64,000 nt of DNA from Lenzites betulinus. Lineage: Eukaryota > Basidiomycota > Agaricomycetes > Polyporales > Polyporaceae. The stretch spans positions 558,001 through 622,000 of the forward strand of contig JABYQU010000008.1 of NCBI GenBank assembly GCA_022264855.1, given 5' to 3'. Under the pieces are notes generated by a model. That model was given only the letters and a program-made list of their open reading frames with translations, searched no databases and was not told the DNA's origin. The stretch's first letter is position 1, and every line of letters starts with the position of its first letter. Below, in pieces: positions 52,122 through 60,649 of the stretch. The position numbers and the translations under genes are program-made.

Positions 52122-54201
52122 ATGTTCTCCTTTCTGGCACACCGCCGCGCATGGTACGTCGTCCCGCGCCTCATGCCACGTCCCCGGGGCCGCTCACGCG
52201 TCTACATCTCTCTGCATACAGCGCGGCGAAACAGCGCGAGCGCGAGGAGCGCATCCGCGCGCTCCCGGCCGAGTACCACGCCCCCCTCTCCGCAGCGGAC
52301 AAGGAGCTGCTCGCACGCCCCGCGGCGGCGATCGTCGCAGGCGTGCAGGCGGGCGCCCTCGCGCCGCTCGACGTGCTCCGGGCGTACGGTAAACAGGCGC
52401 TGCGCGCGCACGCCGCCACGAACTGTCTGACAGAGGTGCTGCTCGCGCCCGCCGCGGAGTGGGCGCGCGCAGCACCTGCACAGGGCCCGCTCGCGGGCAT
52501 GCCGGTGAGCGTGAAGGACACGGTCGCGTTCGCGGGCGAGGACGCGTGCATCGGGTACTCGGCGTGGGTCGGGCGGCCGATGGCGCGCGACGCGGCGCTC
52601 GTGCGGCTGCTGAAGGACGCGGGCGCGGTGCCGTTCGTGAAGACGAACGTGCCGATCACGCTGCTGTCGTTCGAGAGTGCGAACGATGTGTTTGGGACGA
52701 CGACGAACCCGCATAACAGCGCGTACTCGCCCGGGGGCTCGACGGGCGGGGAGGCGGCGCTCCTTGCGTATGGGGGCTCGCGCCTGGGAATCGGCACAGA
52801 CGTCGCGGGCTCTGTGCGCGCACCGGCGTAGGTGTCTTTTCTCTGCATCCGAGGGTGGTCGTGAGTGGGACATTGACCGCACGGGACTTTTGTAGACACT
52901 TCTCGGGCGTATACACGATCAAGGCGTCGAGTTTCCGGTTCCTCAAGACCGGAAACTCGACGAGCATGCCTGGTCAGGAGGGCATCCCTGCGGTGTATTC
53001 TCCCATGACGCGGACGCTTGAAGACCTTGAGATGTTCTGGAAGGCGATCGTGGGTATGAAGCCATGGGAATACGACCACTCGGTAGGCCCAGTTTGCATC
53101 CAGGACCGTCCAAAGTGCGCAGTACGATTGACGTCACATTCAGTGTGTTCCCATCCCTTGGAGGGAGGTCGACTTGGTCTCCGGGAAGCCGATCCGTTGG
53201 GCAGTAATGTGGGACGATGGTGAGCCGTCAAGGATAAATTTGTGTGGAAAGAGACGAGGTCATTAACACTTTATCTGTGTAGGTGTCGTCGCACCTTCTC
53301 CGGCCTGCAGACGGGCGTTGGAAACAGTTGTCTCGGAGTTGAAGTCTCGCGGCCATGAAGTGGTGGAGCTGTATGCATTGAACACATTTATTTTGTCAGG
53401 ACTGTCTCTAACCTGGGTCACAGTGACCCTCCAAGCCCGTATGAGGGTTTCAAGATCGGTGCTCAAATACTGTTCGCTGAAGGTGGTACGTGACCACGTA
53501 TAATGTTCGCAGTCCAGCACTTCATGACACCGCACACAGGAAAACTTTCCACGAAACCCATTCGATGGGGGGAAACCAACGATCCCGGGGTCGTTCAAGC
53601 GCGAGTGGCATTCGCACTACCGCGCTTCGTAAAACACCTCTACGCATGGTACCTCCGCCATATCAAGAGAGACGAGCAATACGCAGGGATAGTGGAAGCA
53701 TGCACTTACAAGGACATCGAGCAGTACCTCGCGCTGGTTGCTAAGCGCGAGGGGTACAGGGAGCAGTGGCACCACAAGCTCAAGGACGAGGCGATCGACT
53801 TCGTGCTCACCGTCCCGAACGCGCTCCCCGCGACGCCGCATCGCGGGATGAAGACCGGCTTCAAGGGCTGCGGGTATACCTTCCTGTTCAACATCGTAAT
53901 TCCCCTCTGGCACGATCGTATATTTCTACCCGGGTGCGACTGATGCCCCTTTCAGCTCGACTATTCTGCGGGCGTTCTGCCGGTTACACACGTTGACAAG
54001 GAGCTCGACGCCTTCGATGCCAAAGCATTCAAACCTCGGAACGCGATCGAGCGCGATATGTACAAGATGTATGATGCGACGAAGATGCACGGTCTGCCAG
54101 TAGGTGTGCAAATCGTCGGGAAGAAGTGGGAAGAGGAGAAGGTCTTGGAGGGCATGAAGCTCGTCGAGGGGCAGGCTCCTAAAACCATCCGTCGTTGGTG
54201 A
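52122..54201 (+). CDS. Amidase-signature enzyme, 3' end displaced by a transposon
   Basis: This is an amidase-signature (FAAH/acetamidase-like) hydrolase. The catalytic residues are visible: Lys in GMPVSVKDTVAF, cis-Ser in YSPGGSTGGEAALLA, and nucleophile Ser in GTDVAGSVRAPAHFSGVY. Later blocks include SPMTRTLEDLEMFWKAIVGM, VELDPPSPYEGFKIGAQILFAEG and HGLPVGVQIVGKKWEEEKVL. Exon 1 (52122-52153) encodes MFSFLAHRRA. The frame then runs to GMKLVEG at 54171 and enters the terminal repeat of a transposon. The repeat supplies QAPKTIRRW and a TGA at 54199-54201. The original last 16 codons lie at 60650-60700. A second oddity is a 27-nt segment (53486-53512) with GT-AG ends and an in-frame TGA. It must be spliced, or the enzyme is truncated there. 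Activity is uncertain, because the last helix normally closes the fold. Confidence 0.85.
53486..53512 (+). other. Putative 27-nt intron or nonsense segment in the amidase
   Basis: GTACGTGACC...TTCGCAG begins GTACGT, ends GCAG and contains an in-frame TGA. Removing it joins ILFAEG to VQHFMTPHTGK with a spacing that fits amidases; keeping it adds about nine codons and a stop. Confidence 0.45.
54163..54171. repeat. Left copy of the 9-bp target-site duplication
   Basis: GTCGAGGGG directly precedes the left terminal repeat. The same nonamer directly follows the right repeat at 60641-60649. In both places it is read as Val-Glu-Gly in the amidase frame. Confidence 0.9.
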
Positions 54202-54485
54202 GTTCTCGTTCCAACATCCGAGGAGAGGGGGTTTATGTAGATTACCGCATATGGTATGTCAGAAAATATTATAAGCGCCATTAGTCATATGTTGCGCGGA
54301 GGATTGCCTATTATATCAGTAGTAGTGGAAGAGTACTCACCAAGACGGCTGGCCTTTTTGTCCCTCCGGGGATACGCCGAGAACATACGCGAGGTGAGGC
54401 GCCCAAGAAATACCGCAGAGGCGCTCAGAATTAATCCATTGTCGCTTGCGGTCGCGTATGCGCGTAATAATATTCTGTGCACAGC
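54172..54485 (+). repeat. Left terminal inverted repeat (314 bp)
   Basis: It is inverted relative to 60326-60640. The inner 153 bp (54333-54485) are identical to the right copy. The outer part has conserved blocks at the tip (34 bp) and around 54274-54330, with diverged sequence in between. It contains GTTG|GTGAGT at 54194-54203, a strong splice donor, and on the other strand TTTTAG|GAGCCTG at the tip, a splice acceptor. It lies immediately upstream of the helicase gene and probably acts as its promoter. Confidence 0.9.
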
Positions 54486-54535
54486 TTGAGCGCATCTCGC
54501 AAAGCTCTATCTCCATCAGACGTCTGAGCTTGTGC

Positions 54536-60135: not shown

Positions 60136-60325
60136 GGCACCGACTACTAGTAGTGCTCTGAGGCTGAAACCGTTGCTCGCATGGTTGCAATTCGAAGCAC
60201 GCCATATGGATTAGAAGCCTCCATCTTCTATTCTGAAAGCATATGATAGGGCGAGGCCTCATAACACACATAAAGCTCTGCGTGGTGTGCCGCCTCAACG
60301 CAAACCTGTCAACAACACCCCCACG
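60136..60325. other. Leader between DUF6589 start and right repeat
   Basis: 190 bp between the DUF6589 start codon and the inner edge of the right repeat, presumably 5' leader. Nothing else is visible. Confidence 0.5.
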
Positions 60326-60640
60326 GCTGTGCACAGAATATTATTACGCGCATACGCGACCGCAAGCGACAATGGATTAATTCTGAGCGCCTCTGCGGTA
60401 TTTCTTGGGCGCCTCACCTCGCGTATGTTCTCGGCGTATCCCCGGAGGGACAAAAAGGCCAGCCGTCTTGGTGAGTACACTTCCCTTACTACTGATATAA
60501 TAGGCAACCCTCCGCAGAACATATGACTAATGGCGCTTATATTTCATTTTAAAACATGCCGTATATAGTAATCTACATAAACCCCTCCGCTCGGATGCGG
60601 GAACGTGAACTCACCAACGACGGATGGTTTTAGGAGCCTG
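60326..60640 (-). repeat. Right terminal inverted repeat (315 bp)
   Basis: Inverted copy of 54172-54485. The tip on the plus strand reads ...GGATGGTTTTAG|GAGCCTG. It offers a splice acceptor at 60632-60633 in the orientation of the amidase. The identical inner half borders the DUF6589 leader. Confidence 0.9.
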
Positions 60641-60649
60641 GTCGAGGGG
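60641..60649. repeat. Right copy of the 9-bp target-site duplication
   Basis: GTCGAGGGG, identical to 54163-54171. It is the first sequence outside the right repeat and continues the amidase reading frame. Confidence 0.9.

What the first reader, a model, noticed from the sequence alone, without database searches (positions are those of the whole stretch)
54163..60649. Complete two-gene DNA transposon pairing a RecQ-like helicase with a DUF6589 protein
The sequence shows a full insertion: a 9-bp direct repeat GTCGAGGGG, 314/315-bp inverted repeats and two convergent genes whose stops are 18 nt apart. The host amidase frame resumes exactly after the right duplication. RecQ-like helicases and DUF6589 proteins are both expanded in mushroom genomes, usually annotated as ordinary genes. 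This window links them as cargo of one element and gives its exact ends. The plan resembles MuDR, but neither protein is a Mutator transposase I recognise, so it may be an undescribed superfamily.
Basis: partly seen in the sequence, partly recalled or inferred. Interest (0 to 1): 0.93.

Follow-up and report, generated by a model that had tools for sequence, protein, structure and literature searches.

The report
Mushroom jumping gene with RecQ helicase
A bracket fungus carries a complete, recently mobile DNA transposon whose "protein of unknown function" is very probably the transposase itself and whose second gene is a RecQ-like helicase, and the same gene pair occurs in other mushroom genomes where both are listed as ordinary or unknown genes.

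Summary
Window 54172-60640 is a 6469-bp DNA transposon: 314/315-bp inverted repeats (93%), ends CAGGCTCC...GGAGCCTG, perfect 9-bp duplications, amidase frame restored by joining the flanks. The genome (Lenzites betulinus) holds a second, inverted copy 3.3 kb away, one position different, with its own 9-bp duplication. Of eight two-ended elements with these termini, five have perfect 9-bp duplications, three of them without genes. A helicase match lies within 10 kb of 9 of 11 DUF6589 loci; in database listings the two genes share 25 contigs in 21 species, and their trees agree (Mantel r 0.85). AlphaFold models (pLDDT 86, 90) resemble RNase H-like DDE transposases with a helical insertion (Hermes, P element, ISCth4, Transib, RAG1), and three Asp are conserved in two diverged lineages; Foldseek E-values alone are not significant. 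RecQ-bearing DNA transposons are known (KolobokH, Academ), but 9-bp duplications and CA..TG ends do not fit Kolobok. A new superfamily is likely, not proven: MuDR or hAT ancestry is possible and Repbase could not be searched. The helicase frame of the window's own copy is interrupted.

The parts
54163..54171 (.). left target-site duplication GTCGAGGGG
   Evidence: identical to 60641-60649
54172..54485 (+). left terminal inverted repeat, 314 bp, begins CAGGCTCC
54536..57174 (+). RecQ-like helicase gene, model exons 54536-54865, 54927-55559, 55607-56293, 56358-56981, 57029-57174; frame interrupted in this copy (stop 56051-56053), open in copy 2
   Evidence: DEAD domain over its cut-off, Helicase_C below it, on separate ORFs; copy-2 protein: best NCBIfam model TIGR00614 RecQ family, E 6.6e-40, 137 bits, below its cut-off of 219.8; motifs ATGSGKT, DEAH, SAT, QRFGRAAR read in the sequence (motif names recalled)
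57193..60135 (-). DUF6589 gene = probable transposase, 916 aa, model exons 60135-59308, 59237-57784, 57728-57629, 57561-57196, stop 57195-57193
   Evidence: PF20231 E 4.3e-86; AlphaFold models
58992..58994 (-). codon of Asp82 of exon 2 (D325 of P0001), in strand beta-1, candidate catalytic acid 1
58455..58457 (-). codon of Asp261 of exon 2 (D505 of P0001), end of beta-4, candidate catalytic acid 2
58350..58352 (-). codon of His296 of exon 2 (H540 of P0001), GxxH after beta-5, where related superfamilies have C/DxxH
   Evidence: motif
57993..57995 (-). codon of Asp415 of exon 2 (D661 of P0001), start of the helix after the helical insertion, candidate catalytic acid 3
60326..60640 (-). right terminal inverted repeat, 315 bp, ends GGAGCCTG
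60641..60649 (.). right target-site duplication GTCGAGGGG
52370..54171 (+). host amidase gene (profile matches 52370-52840 and 53956-54147), interrupted 16 codons before its stop
60650..60700 (+). remainder of the amidase frame, LLKESGKAYTLLEPIE-stop
63950..63958 (.). left target-site duplication CGTACTCAC of copy 2 (its other copy lies outside the window, C87:628429-628437)
63959..64000 (.). first 42 bp of copy 2 (C87:621959-628428, 6470 bp, inverted relative to copy 1)

Best explanation
It is a cut-and-paste DNA transposon, autonomous or until recently so, of a lineage in which the DUF6589 protein is the transposase. The protein pairs the two ~315-bp inverted repeats, cuts at the CA/TG termini and joins them to a target with a 9-bp stagger, using an RNase H-like active site (most likely three aspartates: D325, D505, D661 in P0001 numbering). 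The RecQ-like helicase travels as a regular accessory; I think it most likely acts on the transposition intermediates or on repair of the broken donor and target sites, for example by favouring homologous copy-in repair. Gene-less relatives with the same ends are moved in trans. Shown: ends, 9-bp duplications, two young insertions at different sites, gene-less relatives, linkage and co-inheritance of the two genes, predicted fold. Inferred: catalysis by DUF6589, the identity of the third acid, trans-mobilisation, the role of the helicase.
Confidence: 0.85

Rival explanations
1. It is a strongly diverged member of the MuDR (Mutator-like) superfamily: long inverted repeats, 9-bp duplications and two convergent genes as in MuDR (recalled), with a RecQ-like helicase in the place of the accessory gene.
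Against: No Pfam family except DUF6589 at E up to 1 for the window's exon-2 protein; Hermes and P element score as well or better than ISCth4; G instead of C or D in the motif.
Confidence: 0.25
2. It is a diverged hAT (or P) element with a 9-bp duplication.
Against: 9-bp, not the usual 8-bp duplications (hAT variants with 5-7 bp are known); 315-bp inverted repeats; no hAT or THAP domain found by Pfam in the window's exon-2 protein.
Confidence: 0.1
3. It is KolobokH, the known fungal Kolobok lineage with a RecQ helicase.
For: RecQ helicase in a fungal DNA transposon; Kolobok belongs to the same C/DxxH group.
Against: Kolobok makes TTAA 4-bp duplications and has 5'-RR..YY-3' termini; here duplications are 9 bp without TTAA and the termini are CA..TG. 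[quoted passage not shown] here it is a separate convergent gene. No KolobokH protein was at hand for comparison.
Confidence: 0.03
4. DUF6589 and the helicase are passengers and an unrelated transposase elsewhere moves the element in trans.
For: No known transposase family is recognised by sequence; gene-less elements with the same ends and 9-bp duplications suggest that trans-mobilisation happens.
Against: The pair is kept together and co-inherited in 21 species; DUF6589 is predicted to fold like a DDE transposase.
Confidence: 0.08

Closest known systems
MuDR (autonomous Mutator element of maize; recalled) and the transposase ISCth4
   Different: No MULE domain detected by Pfam in the window protein; second gene is a RecQ-like helicase, not mudrB
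hAT transposon Hermes
   Same: Best structural match of the full-length relative's model, from Hermes residue 137 to 609
   Different: hAT usually duplicates 8 bp and has short inverted repeats (recalled); here 9 bp and ~315 bp
KolobokH (fungal Kolobok with RecQ helicase)
   Same: Fungal DDD/E transposon with RecQ helicase (PMC9587614, passages)
Academ / AcademH
   Same: Transposon-borne helicase, RecQ reported for Academ (PMC3627910, passage); AcademH in Basidiomycota and other fungi (PMC10799480, passages)
   Different: Not compared: the AcademH paper is not held; different transposase and shorter duplications are recalled
Subtelomeric RecQ-like helicases of fungi
   Same: RecQ-like, multicopy (passages of PMC7473861, PMC4522978, PMC10817607, PMC5576322; the last describes one repeat with helicase plus HTH and DDE motifs, read there as a chimera)
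   Different: The passages seen describe telomere-linked genes, not a two-gene element with inverted repeats and 9-bp duplications

Membership tests
[quoted passage not shown]
   5 of 8 two-ended elements with perfect 9-bp duplications; 7/9, 5/9 and 3/9 in the others
[quoted passage not shown]
   two copies, unrelated flanks, one position different
[quoted passage not shown]
   predicted fold and conservation favour it, but Foldseek E-values are not significant and the third acid is uncertain
[quoted passage not shown]
   needs an assay
MuDR / Mutator-like | MULE-type transposase by sequence | tested here: not met
MuDR / Mutator-like | About 9-bp duplication and long inverted repeats (recalled) | tested here: met
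hAT | 8-bp duplication | tested here: not met
   9 bp in the five perfect duplications; hAT variants with 5-7 bp exist
hAT | hAT fold | tested here: inconclusive
Kolobok / KolobokH | TTAA 4-bp duplication | tested here: not met
   definition
Kolobok / KolobokH | RecQ helicase encoded | tested here: met
KDZ (Kyakuja-Dileera-Zisupton) | KDZ transposase domain | tested here: not met
   no Pfam match besides DUF6589 in the window's exon-2 protein
Academ / AcademH | Academ transposase | not tested
   no sequence at hand; paper not held
RecQ helicase family | RecQ-family helicase core | tested here: inconclusive
   best NCBIfam model of the copy-2 protein is RecQ (E 6.6e-40, 137 bits, cut-off 219.8); best solved relatives of P0121 are WRN, RecQ, RECQ5

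The most novel reading that the evidence does not exclude
DUF6589 is the DDD transposase of an undescribed superfamily-level lineage of eukaryotic cut-and-paste transposons, abundant in mushroom-forming fungi, with 9-bp duplications and a co-inherited RecQ-like helicase; hundreds of mushroom genes now listed as DUF6589 or as RecQ helicases are transposon genes.
Probability: 0.6. Interest if true: 0.82.

Novelty: new variant of a known kind. Interest (0 to 1): 0.74.

Why it matters
It would give a function to a Pfam family of unknown function that is spread over mushroom genomes, explain many 'RecQ' genes there as transposon genes, add a lineage to the hAT/P/MuDR/Kolobok/Dada group, and provide a system in which the transposon brings its own RecQ helicase, so the question of what RecQ does for transposition and donor-site repair becomes testable.

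Tried and rejected
Kolobok, hAT, KDZ and passenger readings are discussed above. Viral contigs: 32 pattern matches, none encoding a relative. Sequence comparison with solved structures gave nothing convincing for DUF6589. Viral structure library: best row a hAT-domain protein of a pandoravirus, E 0.043. C20 and C58: alike in the coding part and over one end (C58 287026, C20 32984), but no duplication of 6-12 bp found at that end for C58, and for C20 only a 6-mer. C14, C64, C20 and the C74 locus: no spanning inverted repeat beyond chance in the stretches fetched; C1 and C21 were not fetched in full. My first assembly of locus pieces assumed that loci were turned to the match strand and produced false inverted repeats; corrected. 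The AcademH paper and the Yuan and Wessler classification paper are not held. Of all papers cited I saw passages only, none in whole. Literature searched without finding this element: (DUF6589, 0 papers); the library holds only open-licence PMC papers, and Repbase and Dfam could not be searched, so a database entry may exist.

Full report
What is there. The element runs from window 54172 to 60640 (6469 bp), starts CAGGCTCC, ends GGAGCCTG, has inverted repeats of 314 and 315 bp that are 93% identical, and is flanked by GTCGAGGGG on both sides. It sits in an amidase gene: the Amidase profile matches at window 52370-52840 and, weakly but to its last position, at 53956-54147 (the middle ORF alone gave no Pfam match), and joining the flanks with one repeat copy restores an open frame to a stop 16 codons further on. 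The host reads as Lenzites betulinus (Polyporales): contig C66 has the length of the database contig that encodes a Lenzites betulinus helicase, whose exons match the third C66 unit at 99-100%, and contig C20 likewise for a DUF6589 protein.

Second copy. The genome search with the left end found a second element at C87:621959-628428, 6470 bp, in inverted orientation 3.3 kb from the first; its first 42 bp are the last 42 bp of the window. Its duplication is CGTACTCAC, again 9 bp, and its flanks are unrelated. The two copies differ at one position only, a homopolymer length in the helicase gene. In the window copy the helicase frame therefore ends at 56051-56053, in copy 2 it is open for 806 aa.

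Relatives with the same ends. A related element, present three times in a tandem array on C66, has the same first bases (CAGGCTCCTA) and ~320-bp inverted repeats; its outermost flanks match 5 of 9, which 5.7% of random pairs reach. A search with its end gave 18 matches, 6 of them in C66 and 12 in eight further loci, all eight fetched (the tool calls its counts lower bounds). Five of these eight show both ends: C14:17128-20498, C31:148170-149814 and C26:117478-117733 have perfect 9-bp duplications (GCATGCGGT, TGTCCCACC, GATGAGGGA), C22:143236-143549 has 7 of 9 (0.18% of random pairs) and C61:39528-40997 has 3 of 9; C83, C65 and C21 show one end in the stretch fetched. None of the five showed similarity to four test proteins (two helicases of other species, the C66 helicase, one DUF6589 protein) at E up to 0.01. 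Together with the two window-type copies and C66, 5 of 8 two-ended elements have perfect 9-bp duplications.

The two genes belong together. By the PF20231 profile and the window protein there are 11 DUF6589 loci in the genome (C87 x2, C66 x3, C58, C20, C14, C64, C74, C1) and 12 helicase matches. Nine of 11 DUF6589 loci have a helicase match within 10 kb, or 6 of 8 if the near-identical C87 and C66 copies count once; on C1 the distance is 17 kb, on C74 there is none; the helicase matches on C21 and C36 have no DUF6589 nearby. Seven pairs are convergent, C14 and C64 are divergent. In the protein database the best 120 of 325 DUF6589 relatives and the best 120 of 157 helicase relatives share 25 species-plus-contig-length keys (of 104 and 116 named contigs), in 21 of the 33 species found in both lists, with no cross-species coincidence of lengths. 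In eight of the 25 keys both names carry serial locus tags: Trametes cinnabarina, two Cerrena contigs, Rhodofomes, Pleurotus ostreatus, Dentipellis, Phlebia and Tricholoma; the closest tags are one or two apart. On one Cerrena contig a second DUF6589 protein is 184 tags away. Plicaturopsis names carry JGI numbers in both, which I recall as not positional and left out. For 27 pairs (the 25 keys, with that second Cerrena protein left out, plus the C87 pair and the first C66 unit's main DUF6589 exon with the C66 helicase) distances on the two gene trees correlate with r 0.855; none of 9999 permutations reached it (maximum 0.36); 19 of 27 have the same nearest neighbour. Different copies in one genome follow different partners: the two Pholiota pairs (nearest Crassisporium and Hypsizygus in both trees) and the two Lenzites pairs (nearest Trametes cinnabarina and a Rhodofomes pair in both trees), so this is not only host descent.

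Helicase. DEAD domain on the first exons and a sub-threshold Helicase_C, both clear in the relative P0121; RecQ is the best family of the copy-2 protein although below its cut-off; WRN, RecQ and RECQ5 are the nearest solved relatives of P0121; a C-terminal zinc knuckle is over its cut-off in relative P0146. Motifs I, II, III and VI look intact in the sequence (names recalled).

Mechanism. Binding, cutting and 9-bp staggered joining by DUF6589 follow from the fold and the duplications but are inferred. For the helicase, repair of P-element donor breaks involves the Drosophila Bloom helicase homologue (PMC7776569, passage), and RecQ helicases have been taken up by Kolobok and Academ lineages, so a role at the broken ends is the most economical view. 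The ~315-bp repeats end about 50 bp before the modelled helicase start codon and about 190 bp before that of DUF6589, so they may also hold both promoters, as recalled for MuDR. A motif taken from the repeats, TTGGTGAGTNCNCNTTCC, is found near the outer end of both repeats and again, inverted, further in on the right, a candidate binding site.

Novelty. No paper of the library holds the word DUF6589, and the searches found no such element. RecQ-carrying DNA transposons as a kind are known. I therefore file it as a new variant of a known kind, with a better-than-even chance that it is a new superfamily.

Noticed in passing
contig C66:20160-40965 (L011-L014, L023-L025, L057): Three tandem, 99.97% identical units of about 6931 bp, each an element plus about 690 bp of flank; two of three right ends are truncated by about 12 bp, and the third unit's DUF6589 frame is split.
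   Followed up: partly
C14:17128-20498 (L076), C31:148170-149814 (L077): Gene-less fold-back elements: C14 is a 1568-bp inverted repeat with 99.87% identical arms around a centre of about 235 bp; C31 has 401-bp arms.
   Followed up: partly
C14:1-9500, C64:501-13000: DUF6589 and helicase lie head to head instead of tail to tail, near contig starts; these could correspond to the subtelomeric RecQ loci known in other fungi.
   Followed up: partly
window 54195-54212, 60468-60485, 60600-60617, 63982-63999: Motif TTGGTGAGTNCNCNTTCC (taken from the repeats themselves) in the terminal repeats of both copies, 4 hits with up to 1 mismatch against 0.02 expected.
   Followed up: no
window 54163-54201: From the interrupted amidase the frame runs nine codons into the element and stops, so the host protein would only exchange its last 16 residues for 9; the element end also offers GTGAGT donor-like sites (read).
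   Followed up: no
C48:182837-182884 (L005, L008): Lone 48-bp, 85% match to an inner part of the terminal repeat, without the terminus; probably an old remnant.
   Followed up: partly
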